From a virus: a DNA stretch of 44,153 nucleotides. The notes beneath the pieces are model-generated. The model saw only the letters and a list, made by a program, of their open reading frames with translations, did no database searches and was not told the origin of the DNA. Positions within the stretch are counted from its first letter, which is position 1. Each line of letters opens with the position of its first letter. Where the stretch lies: positions 1 to 44,153 of IMG/VR virus record IMGVR_UViG_3300029286_001051. One strand, written 5' to 3'. Shown piece by piece: positions 5,921 to 44,153 of the stretch. Both the position numbers and the translations under genes were made by a program.

Positions 5921-7321
5921 ATGAGTACAGTATTTAGTGCGTTTCCGGAAGTTCAGGCAATAATTCAGGAAGGGCTGCTTGAAAGCAGGTTGCTTCAGGC
6001 TCTTTATCCGTCCCTGCGTTATCGCAATGCATTTACTCAGATGCCATGGCTGAATAAGGCAAGTTCGGCGTATGTCACCCGTAAGGGCGATGCCGTCCCG
6101 AACCTGACTCGTTTTGCTACCAGAACCGATCCGACGCCGATGACCATCACTGACGAACAGTTTTTGGTCGAAATCGGCCCGTACTTCCCCTATACCGGCG
6201 ACTTCAGCGGTTTTGAAAGCGGCCTTTCGATTGCCGCTGACTTGGTAGATCAAGTTACTCGCGCCGGTCGTGCTGGCGCAAAGGGTCTTGACCGCCTTTC
6301 CAGAAACAAACTGTTCAACGCGGCCCTTGCAGGACAGACCCTTTGTTCTGCCGCTGTGAATAACAGTACGACAGTTCCGGTGCAGGACATCAATGGATTC
6401 GGTATTAAATTCAACGGCGTTACTCAGTTTGTGGCGGCTACTGTTGCTGCACCGCAGGCTGTGTACTTCTGGACGGGCGCTGCTTTTGAAAAAAAGTTTG
6501 TTACCGCTGTTACGCCGACGACTCCCGGACTGACCTATGGGCCGGGTACATTGACCATTTCTGTTGCTGGTACTTATCTGACCAAGACGCCGGTTATCGC
6601 TGAAAGTGCTTCAACGATTTTCCGTTCAGGTGGCGGATACGGTATTGATGATGTTGGTTCCACTGACATTATCACCATCAATGACGTGATGCTTGCTGTT
6701 TCCGAACTGGAAACCCGTAATGTCCCGAAGTTCCCCGATGGTACTTACCACGCCTTCATCGGCCCGAAAGCCAAGTACCAGTTGTTTCAGGATTCGACCT
6801 TTGAACTTCTGGAAAGAGGCCGTGGCGCAGAAGGAAGTCTGTACGGTGGATTCACGATCAACAAGGTCGCTGGTTGCACGTTCTTTGAAACCAGTGAAGC
6901 GCCGAACAGTTCCACGGTTCCGACTGTTGCCGCAAATAAGGGTATTTGGAGTGCGCCACTTGTGAATACAACCAGTATTCCGATTGAACGTACCATTATC
7001 TGTGGCGACGACTTTGCGTTTGAATACAGCAAGGTTGTGGATGCTCAGAACAACGGGAAGAACGGGACTATCACGAATAACGTGGTTGCAATGCCGAACG
7101 GCGTTACCGTGAACACCGACAATCTTTCCCTGATTCTTCGTTGGCCGATTGACCGTAATCAGGATGTTACCAGTGTGAACCTGAAGTTTGAAGGCGACCA
7201 CGTTTGTTCGACTGACTATCTGGCCGGTGGCGCACCCGCCTCTCTGCTTGTCCCGGACGGCGTTACTACTCCGTCTGCCGCGTACAAGAGAGCCGTTGTC
7301 ATTGAACATTCCGGCGTCTGA
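5921..7321 (+). CDS. Major capsid protein
   Basis: The main shell protein, 466 residues, in the standard place after the scaffold. A helical N-terminus with RYRNAFTQMPWLNKASSAYV is followed by an alternating hydrophobic body. The segment about 155-230 is rich in Thr, Val and Gly and could be an inserted domain of the kind found in P22-like capsids. ATG follows AAGGAG. A strong predicted RNA hairpin begins soon after the stop codon. No proteolysis site is evident. Confidence 0.88.
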   Translation: MSTVFSAFPEVQAIIQEGLLESRLLQALYPSLRYRNAFTQMPWLNKASSAYVTRKGDAVPNLTRFATRTDPTPMTITDEQFLVEIGPYFPYTGDFSGFESGLSIAADLVDQVTRAGRAGAKGLDRLSRNKLFNAALAGQTLCSAAVNNSTTVPVQDINGFGIKFNGVTQFVAATVAAPQAVYFWTGAAFEKKFVTAVTPTTPGLTYGPGTLTISVAGTYLTKTPVIAESASTIFRSGGGYGIDDVGSTDIITINDVMLAVSELETRNVPKFPDGTYHAFIGPKAKYQLFQDSTFELLERGRGAEGSLYGGFTINKVAGCTFFETSEAPNSSTVPTVAANKGIWSAPLVNTTSIPIERTIICGDDFAFEYSKVVDAQNNGKNGTITNNVVAMPNGVTVNTDNLSLILRWPIDRNQDVTSVNLKFEGDHVCSTDYLAGGAPASLLVPDGVTTPSAAYKRAVVIEHSGV

Positions 7322-7630
7322 TAAGTAAGTCCCGAATTGGAGTTTACCCAACTCTGATTTAGCCCCTGACCTGATCGCGGGTAACGATTAGGTCAGGGGT
7401 TAGTTGACATCGTAAGGTGTCGAGGGTGCCTGTTCTTTGATGAACGCCCCATGATCCGAAGTCCCCCGCTTTGTGTGTTGGGGTAATGGCGGCGAAAGCT
7501 GGAGAAGTGGCGGTTGCTTATGGCGGCGCGTCGGCTGCGTCATGGCTTGACCACGGCAACGGGGTTAGGAAACGCTTGAAGCGATAGACAATCGCCACTT
7601 CTTCACCCGGAACGTAAAGGAGTTTCAAAA
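7322..7630 (+). ncRNA. Candidate structured RNA between capsid and neck genes
   Basis: This 309-bp gap has no credible gene but many paired segments on the top strand. H1 is 7339-7344 with 7350-7355, loop UACCC. H2 is 7363-7377 with 7385-7399, 15 pairs including one G-U, loop CGGGUAA. H3 is 7404-7411 with 7416-7423, loop GUAA. H4 is 7424-7435 with 7442-7450, with bulges. A long stem pairs 7500-7516 with 7589-7605 (17 pairs, two G-U) and encloses H5 (7525-7529/7537-7541), H6 (7546-7555/7560-7569, loop GCAA) and a small hairpin 7573-7583. Loops H1 and H2 are complementary over five bases. The fold ends about 10 bases before the next ribosome site, so it could be a leader element, a processed small RNA or a terminator complex. 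Confidence 0.6.
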
Positions 7631-8050
7631 ATGGTTGAAGCCAGATTGCTTAAAACCCTTGACGCAATGCGATATGCGAATGTTAAGAAAAACAAGTTTG
7701 CCCCGAAAAAGGGTGACTTGCTTCTTGATGTGTCAGATACCGGGATTCGTGCCGTTCAGGTCGTAGAGATTTCGTATGTTGAATTTGATGGTCGTTTGAT
7801 AACTGTTCAACCCGGTAAGGTTTACAATTTCAACCAGGTTGGACGTGGAATAGTGCAGGACTGGATTTCCAGACTTGGTTTATCTGTTGTCTGTTTTGGC
7901 GAAAAGTTGACCCCGGCTGAAATCAAGGTTGCTGATAAGATTAAGAAAGAAGAAGAAGCGGCTGCGGTTCCCTTCCGTGTTGATTTTACGCCGAAAGAAA
8001 GAAAACCTGTTGCAATAGTACGGAAATCTAAGAAAGCCAAGAAGGGGTAG
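7631..8050 (+). CDS. Unknown neck-region protein
   Basis: A 139-residue protein that I do not recognise. The middle (about 26-85) alternates beta-like segments such as VVEISYVEFDGRLITVQPGKVY. The last 40 residues are highly basic and lysine-rich, ending KSKKAKKG, which could contact DNA or RNA. It is the first gene after the structured non-coding region, has an AAAGGAG ribosome site, and lies 3 bp from the next gene. A head-completion role is possible from position only. Confidence 0.7.
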   Translation: MVEARLLKTLDAMRYANVKKNKFAPKKGDLLLDVSDTGIRAVQVVEISYVEFDGRLITVQPGKVYNFNQVGRGIVQDWISRLGLSVVCFGEKLTPAEIKVADKIKKEEEAAAVPFRVDFTPKERKPVAIVRKSKKAKKG

Positions 8051-12158: not shown

Positions 12159-12176
12159 TTCAAAGGATAATGCTTT

Positions 12177-12614
12177 ATGGCTCTGCGTGGAAGGGACACA
12201 ACAGTTAGTCTATCAACCGGCTTGTTGGAACAAGTTCTGGAAGGTGATGACGTTGTGTCCTTTTCATGGCAGAACCGTCAAGACGTAATCGGTAGAAGGC
12301 ATTTCGGGCAATCGCACGACCATCATGAAGAACGGTTTAAGGACGTTATGATTAAGATGAAACTCAATCATAAGAATCCTACCGTACTTCAGTTTTTGGT
12401 CAATATTTCGTCAAGAGGGCGTCAGGAAACTTCGGGGATGGTAGTGAAGGCCACAACGAAGTATAAGATGCCGAATGGCGAAACGAATAAGATTCTGTTC
12501 AATGACATAAAGTTTGAAGGCGCGGGGATGGATTCAGACGATAGAGAATTGAACGTAAGTACAGAACTGGTTGGGTACTGTCACATTGCAGAACCCTTAA
12601 CGAGTATTGTTTAA
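12177..12614 (+). CDS. Tail tube protein, paralogue 2
   Basis: A 145-residue paralogue of the preceding protein: same MALRGR start, FSWQN(R)QDV segment, KLNHKNPTV strand and FEGAGMDSDDRELNV end. The two are clearly duplicated but well diverged. One may form the tube and the other a tube initiator or distal tube ring. It has a His-rich stretch (HDHHEE, about 48-53) not shared with paralogue 1. An AAAGGA ribosome site lies about 9-10 bases upstream. Confidence 0.78.
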   Translation: MALRGRDTTVSLSTGLLEQVLEGDDVVSFSWQNRQDVIGRRHFGQSHDHHEERFKDVMIKMKLNHKNPTVLQFLVNISSRGRQETSGMVVKATTKYKMPNGETNKILFNDIKFEGAGMDSDDRELNVSTELVGYCHIAEPLTSIV

Positions 12615-29743: not shown

Positions 29744-30213
29744 CCTATCCGCCATTTTTTTCTTCAATTACAACTTTATTCTTTTTAATGGCCAATAGAA
29801 CTGACTAGAATTACTACGTTTTAATTGCGTCTATTAACTTTCTATTCACATTTTATACTTTTCGGTTAATAGAAAATCAGGCTTCCCGGTGGCTGGCTAT
29901 GTCGGGTTGAAGCCGAATTGCAACCAGAACGGCGCACTGGGAAGCCTTAAATGGAATCATGGAGAACAAGCAAATGATAAACTGAACGCCTTGACTTATC
30001 AATCTCATTTTGTAACCATTTGATTGTAAGCGCACCTCCACCACTTACTTGGCAATATTCTCCTGCCACGTCCTTACCGCTACCCCAATTTTAGTTGCAA
30101 AACTAATAGGCGGTAAGGATTGCCCGGTTTCTTATAACTAATTGCTTGACACTAATTGGCCTTATCGGTTACTATTTAGACGTGCTTTTACTTACTTAAT
30201 GGAGGCTACAAGG
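29744..30213 (+). other. Non-coding region with two strong hairpins and a promoter
   Basis: No gene is seen in these 470 bases. Its first 130 bases are A/T-rich. A 13-pair stem joins 29879-29891 with 29935-29947 (one G-U), with an inner GGTTG/CAACC stem. A second one joins 30071-30080 with 30110-30119 (ten perfect pairs) and contains TTAGTT-GCAA-AACTAA (30091-30106), capped by a GNRA tetraloop. A shorter TGGCA/TGCCA pair lies at 30050-30068. These could be a small RNA, an attachment or origin site, or a terminator complex separating lysis from recombination genes. Confidence 0.55.
30146..30175 (+). promoter_or_regulatory. Sigma-70-like promoter before the HTH gene
   Basis: The perfect -35 box TTGACA at 30146-30151 is followed after 18 bases by TACTAT at 30170-30175, a fair -10 box. 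Transcription would start near 30183, shortly before the GGAGG at 30201-30205. This would drive the recombination cluster that starts at 30214. Confidence 0.55.
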
Positions 30214-36417: not shown

Positions 36418-38628
36418 TTATTCAGCGTCATCCGTCCCGGTTTTGAACAAATCATGCTGCGCCAGTGCTGAATTCAGATTCTTGCATGCGACGTTGAAAT
36501 ATCCCGGCTTCAATTCGATACCGACAAACTTACGGTTATGTTTCAATGCGACATAGCCTTCTGATCCGATGCCAGCAAAAGGCGAAAATACGGTATCTCC
36601 GACGTTCGACCAAAGGCGGACGCAACGCTCGATTGTTCCCAACTGTAACGGACATATGTGTTTTTCATCCTTTTCGTTTCTGGCTTCTGATGCCTGCAAT
36701 GTTTCAGATTCACGGATGCCGTACCATATCGGACGCGCCCAAAGAATCCAATCTTCGTTCGATACATCGTCGCCGGGTTTAACTGGTTCTTCGTTTTCCT
36801 TCGGATGCCTGAAACAAAGGATATAATCTGCCATCGCGGGACGAAGCCATGCGGCATCACGATTCTTCTGAACAAACATCAACTGTTTCGATTTCGTTCT
36901 GATTGCTTGCGCCTGCGGGTCTTTATCAATAACTACTTCGCCATCGTAAACCCATCCATTTTTGACAAATGCCGCAACGGTATCAGCTCGAAAGTCTTTC
37001 CAACCAATGACGCCATCAACGGACTTCTTCATTGCGACCTGTTGAACATGGACAGCACACCGACGACCCGGCATCGTAACCCGCATCAATTCGGGAATCA
37101 GATAATCAAAATGGATAAAGAACTCGCTGTAGTCTTTACTGTTGCCCATGTCGCGGTCCATCGCGGAGTAAGTGTACAACGAAGCAAACGGCGGCGAAAA
37201 TACCGACAGCCCCATTGAAGCGTCCGGTATTTCCTTAATCCTTTCGCAACAGTCGCCGAGCATCATCTTCCAGTTCCCACCGTCCCGGTCATCGGTCTGA
37301 TATTCTGATTTCATAACTGATATCCCCCTTACGACTTCCATCTGTTTTGCCTTCATTGCTGATACAACAGCATCCGACATACGATTGGCTTCATGCTCTT
37401 TACGCTTGACGTTGTTTGATATTTGGCCTTCAACGTCTGAAACAACAATCCGAACGTCAACCGCTTCTTTCTGACCGAACCGCCAACATCTACGAATTGC
37501 CTGATAGTACTGTTCGTAACTGTCACCGATTCCCAAAAACATCATGTTATGGCAATGTTGGAAGTTCAGGCCGAAACCGAAAATTGACGGCTTACTGACC
37601 ATGATTTGCACTTCGCCCATTCGCCATTTTCGTTCGCGCTCAATCTTATGTTCTTCTGAATCTGCCCCGCATACTTCAACGGCCGACGCGCCCAGTGCTT
37701 TTGCGATTGCTGCGCTTTCGTCATTAAGTCCGCACCAGATTAACCACTGTTCGCCGGGTTTGGATGCAATAACGGTCTGCGCCCGTTCAATCCTTGCTTC
37801 CATCGTGCTTCTACGGACCTTTGCGCGTGTGCCAATTCCGCCAATCGTCGCGGCAAAAAGCATACCATCCGGGACGTATTCACATTCAACCATTTCGTCA
37901 ACAATCTTCAATTCGGGTAGTTCAAACAGACCATCTTCATATCCAAGGTCAGACGGCTTACGAACAAAAACTGACCATTCAGCCATCCACGCAAACATAG
38001 CGTCTGCCGCCCAGCCCTTCAAACGCCAACCGGCCCCGTGTGATTCGTCGTGAACAAACCATGTTGCGAGCATTTCGACGCGGGACATTACGCCCAAAAA
38101 CTCTGCGTGATTTGCAAGTTCGGTAATGTCATTCGGTGCGGGCGTCGCGGTGCAGCACAACCGATATGGTACGTCTGAAAAGTCATTCAAAAGCATCGTG
38201 CGCGTCTTGCCGTCAACTGATTTCAGGATACTCGATTCGTCCAAAACAATAGCATCCAACGGCATACCGACGAACTTATGGATTCGTTCATAATTCGTAA
38301 TCCATATTCCGTCACCAACACAATCAGATGATTCGTAAACGCGGGTAACTTTCAGGTCAATCTTCAACCCTTCCCTGACTGTTTGCTCAGCAACAGCAAT
38401 CGGCGCAACAATCAGAACACGTTCCGCGAAGTTACGCGCCCACTCCAACTGAATCAGCGTCTTGCCCATGCCGCAATCCGCAAATACAGCGGCGCGTCCA
38501 AGTCTGACAGCCCAATTTACAATATCAGACTGAAACGGGTACAGCATCGGATGAACTAGCATTGGATCACGCCCCAACTTCTCGACCTTTGATAACTTTG
38601 ACTTCAAAAAATCCTCGTAACTGTTCAT
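36418..38628 (-). CDS. Superfamily 2 helicase fused to an N4-type DNA methyltransferase
   Basis: A 736-residue two-part protein. The N-terminal part has a Walker A DCGMGKT (51-57), a DESS box (130-133) and CTATP (159-163), then motifs VSKPSIFGFGLNFQ and QAIRRCWRFGQK (about 350-395), i.e. a complete SNF2/DEAD-like ATPase. The C-terminal part has SPPF (near 476), the usual motif IV of N4-cytosine and some N6-adenine methyltransferases, and FSPFAGIGSEGYVAL (near 679) as SAM-binding motif I. It may modify phage DNA in a translocation-coupled manner. It overlaps the upstream gene by four bases. Confidence 0.82.
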   Translation of the reverse strand: MNSYEDFLKSKLSKVEKLGRDPMLVHPMLYPFQSDIVNWAVRLGRAAVFADCGMGKTLIQLEWARNFAERVLIVAPIAVAEQTVREGLKIDLKVTRVYESSDCVGDGIWITNYERIHKFVGMPLDAIVLDESSILKSVDGKTRTMLLNDFSDVPYRLCCTATPAPNDITELANHAEFLGVMSRVEMLATWFVHDESHGAGWRLKGWAADAMFAWMAEWSVFVRKPSDLGYEDGLFELPELKIVDEMVECEYVPDGMLFAATIGGIGTRAKVRRSTMEARIERAQTVIASKPGEQWLIWCGLNDESAAIAKALGASAVEVCGADSEEHKIERERKWRMGEVQIMVSKPSIFGFGLNFQHCHNMMFLGIGDSYEQYYQAIRRCWRFGQKEAVDVRIVVSDVEGQISNNVKRKEHEANRMSDAVVSAMKAKQMEVVRGISVMKSEYQTDDRDGGNWKMMLGDCCERIKEIPDASMGLSVFSPPFASLYTYSAMDRDMGNSKDYSEFFIHFDYLIPELMRVTMPGRRCAVHVQQVAMKKSVDGVIGWKDFRADTVAAFVKNGWVYDGEVVIDKDPQAQAIRTKSKQLMFVQKNRDAAWLRPAMADYILCFRHPKENEEPVKPGDDVSNEDWILWARPIWYGIRESETLQASEARNEKDEKHICPLQLGTIERCVRLWSNVGDTVFSPFAGIGSEGYVALKHNRKFVGIELKPGYFNVACKNLNSALAQHDLFKTGTDDAE

Positions 38629-39523: not shown

Positions 39524-39667
39524 TTATTTTCCAGTACCAGGTTGCAGTCCGTGACGCAGAACAGGCCCGCGCTCGACCTTGAAAGTGACAGGTTCATCCC
39601 GGCCACAAAACGCGCCGTTCAAATCTGCTTCGATTTCCCAACCGTTGATATTCACGCGATTACTCAT
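39524..39667 (-). CDS. Small protein with conserved MSNRVNINGWEI start, copy 1
   Basis: A 47-residue protein. Its first 12 residues (MSNRVNINGWEI) are identical to those of the gene at 43788, after which the two diverge. ATG follows GGAGGAGG. The shared part lies in the 272-bp repeat. Role unknown. The sequence after the repeat (EADLNGAFCGRDEPVTF) has no recognised motif. Confidence 0.55.
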   Translation of the reverse strand: MSNRVNINGWEIEADLNGAFCGRDEPVTFKVERGPVLRHGLQPGTGK

Positions 39668-39901
39668 GTTCCTCCTCCAGTTCATCAACGCGGAATTGAA
39701 GATCCGCGACTTGTGCCTGCAATGTTTCAATTTCATCGTCTTTTTTGTTCAACAGGTCATTGAGTTGGTCCAGACAGTAACCACCATCTGCGTTCAAGTG
39801 TCTAATTTGCATTCACTCCCCCTTCGCCGCGTCCCGCCAAGTCAGCGAAACCAGTTTACCGCCCACAACCTCGATCGTTTCTGGCCTGTCGCACAAAACG
39901 A
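39630..39901. repeat. 272-bp direct repeat, copy 1
   Basis: This stretch is the same as 43882-44153 except at two positions (39733 T versus A; 39775 C versus T). It carries the start of the MSNRVNINGWEI gene, all of a coiled-coil gene and the 3' end of the gene at 39813. Both differences are missense in the coiled-coil gene. Copy 2 runs off the right edge of the window, so its true length may be greater. Confidence 0.95.
39660..39812 (-). CDS. 50-residue coiled-coil protein, copy 1
   Basis: A short frame beginning MQIRHLNADGGYCLDQL, followed by a heptad-like coiled coil rich in Leu, Asp, Glu and Gln (about 14-49). ATG lies three bases after AAGGGGGAG. The 3' end overlaps the start of the next gene. 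Copy 2 at 43912-44064 differs at two residues (Cys 13 to Tyr, Glu 27 to Val). It may bind another small phage protein. Confidence 0.7.
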   Translation of the reverse strand: MQIRHLNADGGYCLDQLNDLLNKKDDEIETLQAQVADLQFRVDELEEEHE

Positions 39902-43798: not shown

Positions 43799-43919
43799 CA
43801 TAGTCCCTTCCGTCCTTAAGTCGCGCCCACTCCAACAGGAAGTTCAGGTCGGCTTTACTGATTGGCACTTCATTGTCAGTGTCGATTTCCCAACCGTTGA
43901 TATTCACGCGATTACTCAT
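43788..43919 (-). CDS. Small protein with conserved MSNRVNINGWEI start, copy 2
   Basis: A 43-residue protein with the same first 12 residues as the gene at 39524, then DTDNEVPISKADLNFLLEWARLK. The shared part lies in the 272-bp repeat, so the different 3' parts mark where the duplication junction falls. ATG follows GGAGGAGG. The stop overlaps the initiator start region. Role unknown. Confidence 0.55.
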   Translation of the reverse strand: MSNRVNINGWEIDTDNEVPISKADLNFLLEWARLKDGRDYDET

Positions 43920-44064
43920 GTTCCTCCTCCAGTTCATCAACGCGGAATTGAAGATCCGCGACTTGTGCCTGCAATGTTTCAATTACATCGTCTTTTTTGT
44001 TCAACAGGTCATTGAGTTGGTCCAGATAGTAACCACCATCTGCGTTCAAGTGTCTAATTTGCAT
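43912..44064 (-). CDS. 50-residue coiled-coil protein, copy 2
   Basis: Second copy of the coiled-coil gene, with residue 13 Tyr instead of Cys and residue 27 Val instead of Glu. AAGGGGGAG precedes the ATG at 44064. Both changes are missense, which suggests that the copies are drifting or specialising after a recent duplication. Confidence 0.65.
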   Translation of the reverse strand: MQIRHLNADGGYYLDQLNDLLNKKDDVIETLQAQVADLQFRVDELEEEHE

Positions 44065-44153
44065 TCACTCCCCCTTCGCCGCGTCCCGCCAAGTCAGCGA
44101 AACCAGTTTACCGCCCACAACCTCGATCGTTTCTGGCCTGTCGCACAAAACGA
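44065..44153 (-). CDS. C-terminal end of a second copy of the 70-residue protein (partial)
   Basis: The last 29 codons or so of a protein identical to the end of the gene at 39813, including the stop. The 5' part lies beyond the right edge, so it may be full-length or diverge there. Confidence 0.6.
   Translation of the reverse strand, partial: VLCDRPETIEVVGGKLVSLTWRDAAKGE

What the first reader, a model, noticed from the sequence alone, without database searches (positions are those of the whole stretch)
7337..7605. A large, multi-branched structured RNA candidate after the major capsid gene
By reading, this region has a 15-pair hairpin (7363-7377/7385-7399), a hairpin with a GUAA tetraloop (7404-7423), a bulged hairpin (7424-7450), and a 17-pair long stem (7500-7516/7589-7605) enclosing two or three hairpins, one with a GCAA tetraloop (7546-7569). 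G-U pairs occur inside otherwise Watson-Crick stems. Such density of long stems in one 270-nt gap is very unusual for a phage head-neck spacer. It could be a new RNA class or a leader regulating neck genes.
Basis: partly seen in the sequence, partly recalled or inferred. Interest (0 to 1): 0.85.

Follow-up and report, generated by a model that had tools for sequence, protein, structure and literature searches.

The report
Orphan structured RNA after capsid gene
The spacer just after the major capsid gene of an unusual tailed phage encodes a genuinely folded, multi-branched RNA about 270 bases long with no known relative; most likely it is a structural element of the phage mRNA that separates and protects the capsid message from the neck-gene message.

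Summary
Window 7337-7620 on the + strand folds at -129.8 kcal/mol, z -5.9, and none of 200 shuffles did as well. It holds three GNRA tetraloops, a number none of 150 shuffles reached. The complement folds less well (z -3.5), because 18 G-U pairs exist only in the + strand RNA. Corrected anatomy: hairpins H1 (8 bp), H2 (19 bp) and H3 (8 bp, GUAA), then a closed multi-helix domain 7424-7608. There is no Rfam family, no credible ORF and no DNA relative. The phage is an orphan: nearest capsid relatives are 31% identical, so covariation could not be tested. Those relatives lack this RNA, but the position directly after the capsid gene is enriched for strong RNA hairpins (7 of 18 against 11 of 143 other gene ends, p = 4e-6). 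I read it as an enlarged, lineage-specific version of a post-capsid mRNA hairpin: a processing and stability barrier between an abundant product and scarce neck proteins. The H3 region can also pair with codons 9-15 of the next gene at nearly equal energy, so a switch is possible. A processed trans-acting RNA is not excluded. RNA-level selection is well supported; the function is inferred.

The parts
5921..7321 (+). major capsid protein gene (466 aa), upstream neighbour; its C-terminus aligns to the ends of homologous capsid proteins, so it is complete
   Evidence: phrog_1357 major head protein E 1.4e-13; alignment with Kromp and phiKX1 capsid proteins
7337..7357 (+). hairpin H1, 8 bp, loop UACCC
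   Evidence: fold, mean pair probability 0.89
7359..7403 (+). hairpin H2, 19 continuous bp (3 G-U), loop CGGGUAA; post-capsid hairpin without a U-tract
   Evidence: mean pair probability 0.97, z about -8; terminator scan does not list it
7404..7423 (+). hairpin H3, 8 bp with GUAA tetraloop, abutting H2 and the next helix without linker
   Evidence: z -4.7, mean probability 0.96 in the 7337-7610 context; competes with the alternative helix in longer contexts
7424..7608 (+). closed multi-helix domain, closing helix P4 7424-7428/7604-7608 (GGGTG/CACCC)
   Evidence: closing helix competes with the alternative pairing
7432..7445 (+). small hairpin P5 (4 bp)
7446..7484 (+). interrupted hairpin P6 (6+2+6 bp), loop CCCCC
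7490..7501 (+). hairpin P7, 4 bp, GAAA tetraloop
7502..7603 (+). long stem P8 (15 bp, 7502-7516/7589-7603) closing a four-way junction
   Evidence: mean pair probability 0.99; domain 7496-7610 z -4.3 to -4.8
7519..7544 (+). hairpin P8a
7546..7569 (+). hairpin P8b with GCAA tetraloop
   Evidence: mean probability 0.99
7573..7583 (+). hairpin P8c (4 bp)
7345..7383 (+). possible loop-loop contact: H1 loop 7345-7349 UACCC with H2 loop 7379-7383 GGGUA, 5 Watson-Crick pairs
   Evidence: seen in sequence; 21 of 600 shuffles show a loop pair this good, so suggestive only
7409..7673 (+). alternative long-range helix 7409-7414 + 7417-7427 with 7655-7665 + 7668-7673 (codons 9-15 of the next gene), mutually exclusive with H3 and P4
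   Evidence: states at -152.9 and -152.4 kcal/mol; duplex -28.0, 1 of 2000 downstream shuffles as good; 3 of 150 when any leader segment may pair
7616..7622 (+). ribosome binding site AAAGGAG of the next gene, just after the RNA domain ends
   Evidence: sequence
7631..8050 (+). next gene (139 aa, neck region, no family match)

Best explanation
It is a lineage-specific, folded intergenic element of the late (structural) mRNA. Transcribed as part of the capsid-to-neck message, it folds on its own. H2, a 19-bp uninterrupted helix shortly after the capsid stop codon, would block 3'-to-5' decay and so protect the capsid message. It and the 15-bp P8 stem may also be cut by a double-strand endoribonuclease such as RNase III. 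The closed domain 7424-7608 then forms a stable 5' cap on the neck-gene message and ends just before its ribosome binding site. Result: high capsid and low neck-protein output from one transcript (selective processing and stabilisation). Shown: the structure, its strand specificity, its position, and the enrichment of strong hairpins at this position in relatives. Inferred: cleavage, stabilisation and the effect on expression.
For: Folding z -5.9 and three GNRA loops against 0.07 expected. G-U pairs make the + strand (the coding strand of all neighbouring late genes) the structured one: -129.8 against -98.3 for the complement. Autonomous folding: 86 of 101 pairs kept in all longer contexts. 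No promoter-like site on the + strand nearby and no U-tract after H2, so neither a separate transcription unit nor a standard terminator is indicated. Strong hairpins are enriched right after the capsid gene in distant relatives: mean z -2.5 against -0.5 at other gene ends, p 4e-6; with only gene ends followed by a gap, p 0.0015; at 60% clustering, p 0.003. The nearest relatives L170/L171 carry one strong hairpin there. Intergenic stem-loops that set subunit ratios in one operon are documented for the cip-cel operon (PMC10311766) and E. coli (PMC10667835).
Against: A single hairpin would suffice, so the four-way junction, the GNRA loops and the 185-nt closed domain are not explained by this role. 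No transcript, cleavage or stability data. No close relatives, so conservation of the fold is untested. The enrichment is measured on capsid proteins at most 31% identical, in which the large domain itself is absent.
Confidence: 0.5

Rival explanations
1. A free-standing phage noncoding RNA: the late transcript is cut and the 7337-7608 piece accumulates as a trans-acting or self-assembling RNA, for example a decoy against a host defence or an oligomer built through loop-loop contacts.
For: The closed domain, the helices abutting without linkers, three GNRA loops and low unpaired fraction look like an evolved ncRNA; the H1 and H2 loops are complementary over 5 nt, and the rigid 19-bp H2 makes an intermolecular contact easier than an intramolecular one (inference). 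Large phage RNAs of unknown function that form loop-loop complexes exist (GOLLD, ROOL; PMC12286853).
Against: No promoter or terminator around it; no family match, including known phage RNAs; loop complementarity this good occurs in 21 of 600 shuffles; no second copy in held sequence.
Confidence: 0.2
2. A regulatory leader (switch) of the neck genes: H3 plus the closing helix P4 compete with a long-range helix to codons 9-15 of the next gene, so that translation, a protein (for instance a virion protein) or cleavage sets which state forms.
For: Two mutually exclusive states within 0.5 kcal/mol; the -28 kcal/mol duplex is matched by 1 of 2000 shuffles of the downstream stretch, 3 of 150 allowing for the choice of leader segment.
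Against: Found after the fact; other places in the genome pair as well with the same segment, e.g. 2133-2236; the paired codons start 24 nt after the start codon, outside the usual initiation footprint; the ribosome binding site is about equally accessible in all contexts tried.
Confidence: 0.15
3. A cis-acting antitermination element that modifies RNA polymerase for reading the long late operon, as HK022 put RNA does.
For: Position early in a run of + strand genes reaching to about 34 kb; put RNA is a cis-acting pure-RNA element of two stem-loops (PMC9378689).
Against: put RNA is about 70 nt and lies near early promoters; this lies inside the operon, after the terminase, portal and capsid genes; no family match.
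Confidence: 0.07
4. Remnant of a gene or mobile element inserted after the capsid gene.
For: The gap is longer than in most relatives.
Against: Longest + strand frame inside the gap 38 aa, no family match in any small ORF; no other copy in its genome; stems are intact with G-U pairs, which decay would not be expected to leave.
Confidence: 0.05
5. Chance or assembly artefact.
For: Single virus record; no relative to confirm it.
Against: z -5.9 and GNRA excess; arms differ by G-U pairs, unlike the perfect palindromes of chimeric reads.
Confidence: 0.03

Closest known systems
Intergenic processing/stabilising stem-loops of operons (cip-cel operon, PMC10311766; E. coli selective RNA processing and stabilisation, PMC10667835)
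   Same: stable structure between genes of one transcript whose products are needed in very different amounts; stem-loops at both ends of the resulting pieces
   Different: those are mainly stem-loops; here three hairpins plus a 185-nt closed multi-helix domain with GNRA loops; cleavage not shown
Post-capsid hairpins of distantly related phages
   Same: same position directly after the capsid stop codon, strong hairpin
   Different: single hairpin (L171 with a U-tract like an intrinsic terminator); no large 3' domain; no sequence similarity
GOLLD and ROOL RNAs (PMC12286853; PMC2864571)
   Same: large ornate phage/prophage RNAs of unknown function, with loop-loop contacts
   Different: longer (GOLLD often over 800 nt), often near tRNA islands; no Rfam match here and no tRNA in the window
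phi29-type packaging RNA
   Same: phage RNA with complementary hairpin loops (general knowledge of the family, not tested here)
   Different: no Rfam match, different architecture and genome position
HK022 put RNA (PMC9378689)
   Same: structured phage RNA element that acts in cis
   Different: about 70 nt, two stem-loops, early operons

Membership tests
any Rfam family (GOLLD, ROOL, OLE, HEARO, introns, phage pRNA, riboswitches, small ribozymes) | covariance-model match at or near the gathering score | tested here: not met
   no hit in the window at gathering; at E up to 5 only two sub-threshold hits, both on the other strand
intrinsic terminator | G+C-rich hairpin followed at once by a U-tract | tested here: not met
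   H2 is followed by UUGACAUCG, no U-run; H2 not listed by the terminator scan
operon processing/stabilising stem-loop | stable hairpin between genes of one transcript | tested here: met
   + strand late genes on both sides; co-transcription itself is inferred from the layout
operon processing/stabilising stem-loop | endonucleolytic cleavage at the structure and different stability of the two pieces | not testable with these tools
   needs RNA from infected cells
evolutionarily conserved structured RNA class | compensatory changes in homologs | not tested
   no homolog of the RNA found:
protein-coding gene or gene remnant | open frame or homology to a protein family | tested here: not met

The most novel reading that the evidence does not exclude
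A previously undescribed phage RNA class, about 270 nt, processed from the late transcript and acting as an RNA in its own right (self-assembling through the H1/H2 loops or binding a phage or host partner), with a bistable link to the first neck gene.
Probability: 0.2. Interest if true: 0.8.

Novelty: new variant of a known kind. Interest (0 to 1): 0.5.

Why it matters
If it is a processing and stability element, it is an unusually elaborate example of how phages make hundreds of capsid subunits and a few neck proteins from one transcript. The survey here also suggests that the position right after the capsid gene is, in distantly related phages, a favoured place for strong RNA structure, which is testable in existing phage RNA-seq. 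If it is a free RNA, it would be a new orphan phage ncRNA.

Tried and rejected
Rfam at both thresholds: nothing. DNA relatives in phage and plasmid collections: none. Capsid and terminase as single-protein queries found no close relative; alignments found only relatives at most 34% identical. Pattern scans for the H3 hairpin, the P8 arms and the H2 arms gave hits without any further similarity to the gap. A single-sequence covariance model of 7424-7608 finds only the window; the next hit, L139 (18 bits), was selected for the P8 arms by the pattern scan and lies in an unrelated context. The nearest relatives' records hold no match. DNA-level folding (cruciform, replication origin) was considered: the DNA z-scores are -3.6 and -2.9, weaker than the RNA + strand. 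Gene remnant rejected. A first attempt at sliding-window z-scores timed out and was replaced by an energy-against-G+C scan.

Full report
What is there. The window is a 44,153-base virus record of a myovirus-like phage with terminase, portal, capsid, tail sheath and baseplate J genes. The gap 7322-7630 lies between the capsid gene, whose product is complete at its C-terminus against homologs, and a 139-aa gene with its own AAAGGAG ribosome binding site. It has no credible open frame.

Is it more than chance? As RNA the + strand of 7337-7620 folds at -129.8 kcal/mol, z -5.88, with none of 200 dinucleotide shuffles as good; the complement gives -98.3, z -3.51. DNA parameters give z -3.56 and -2.92. 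The asymmetry comes from 18 G-U pairs of 101, which points to RNA transcribed in the direction of the surrounding late genes. Three of nine hairpin loops are GNRA tetraloops, against 0.07 on average in the folds of shuffled sequences and never three in 150 shuffles. Among 270-nt stretches of the window, this region is second in stability for its G+C content; the first is inside the gene at 12177. 86 of 101 pairs are kept in every longer context up to 1,300 nt.

Anatomy. H1 7337-7357; H2 7359-7403 with 19 continuous pairs; H3 7404-7423 with GUAA; then helix P4 7424-7428/7604-7608 closes a domain with P5, P6, P7 (GAAA) and P8, a 15-bp stem over a four-way junction with P8a, P8b (GCAA) and P8c. 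H2, H3 and P4 follow each other without linkers, as do P7/P8 and P8/P4, which would allow coaxial stacking (inference).

Relatives. The phage is isolated: no DNA match in the phage or plasmid collections, capsid relatives at most 31% identical and terminase at most 34%. Covariation, the decisive test, was therefore impossible. A covariance model of 7424-7608 finds nothing else credible in 859 kb of window and fetched loci nor in the records of the two nearest relatives. So the large domain is lineage-specific as far as can be seen.

The position is not lineage-specific. In 18 representatives (70% clustering) of the distant capsid relatives, the 80 nt after the capsid gene fold with mean z -2.5, against -0.5 for 143 other gene ends in the same loci (7 of 18 against 11 of 143 below -2.5; Mann-Whitney p 4e-6). 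Restricting to gene ends followed by a real gap leaves p 0.0015, and clustering at 60% leaves p 0.003 with few representatives. The nearest relatives L170/L171 have a single strong hairpin with a U-tract there, L016 a 146-nt giant hairpin, L025 and L017 strong simple hairpins. In the window itself, the 80 nt after the capsid gene have z -5.8, the lowest of 39 gene ends.

Mechanism. The simplest account is an mRNA element: a hairpin after the capsid gene that stops exonucleases, a long helix that a double-strand endonuclease can cut, and a stable 5' structure for the neck message. H2 lacks the U-tract of an intrinsic terminator, so transcription should continue into the neck genes. This kind of stoichiometry control is documented for other operons (PMC10311766, PMC10667835). 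It does not explain the elaborate 3' domain, which keeps a free RNA or a switch alive. Two leads for these: the H1 loop UACCC and the H2 loop GGGUA are complementary, but 21 of 600 shuffles show as much; and 7409-7427 can pair with 7655-7673 inside the next gene, excluding H3 and P4, at 0.5 kcal/mol better total energy, a duplex matched by 1 of 2000 shuffles, or 3 of 150 when the choice of leader segment is allowed for. Both were noticed after looking and need tests.

Comparison with known kinds. No Rfam family matches at E up to 5 on this strand, so it is not filed under GOLLD, ROOL, pRNA, introns or riboswitches. It works, in my reading, like an operon processing/stabilising element; membership in that loose group rests on position and structure, while cleavage is untested.

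Verdict. Real structured RNA: about 95% likely. Function as an intergenic processing and stability element: about 50%. The rest is spread over a free RNA, a leader switch, antitermination and minor options.

Noticed in passing
12176-12279 (+): A second very strong + strand hairpin (about 25 pairs) lies across the first codons of the 145-aa ORF 12177-12614; z -5.87 on +, -3.52 on -. It could control translation of that tail-region gene.
   Followed up: partly
39630-39901 and 43882-44153: A 272-nt direct repeat, 99% identical, whose second copy ends exactly at the end of the record; it may mark a misjoined assembly end or a real internal repeat.
   Followed up: no
29744-30141 (+): A roughly 400-nt AT-rich stretch without a long ORF on the + strand, with an inverted repeat near its start.
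   Followed up: no
36418-38628 (-): A 736-aa ORF that fuses a helicase C-terminal/SNF2-like part with an N6/N4 DNA methyltransferase domain.
   Followed up: no
about 34000: GC skew changes sign at about 34 kb, where genes switch from + to - strand.
   Followed up: no
L016:5264-5425; L171:5371-5466: In distant relatives the post-capsid gap holds a giant 146-nt hairpin (L016) or a terminator-like hairpin with a U-tract (L171), part of a general enrichment of structure after capsid genes.
   Followed up: partly
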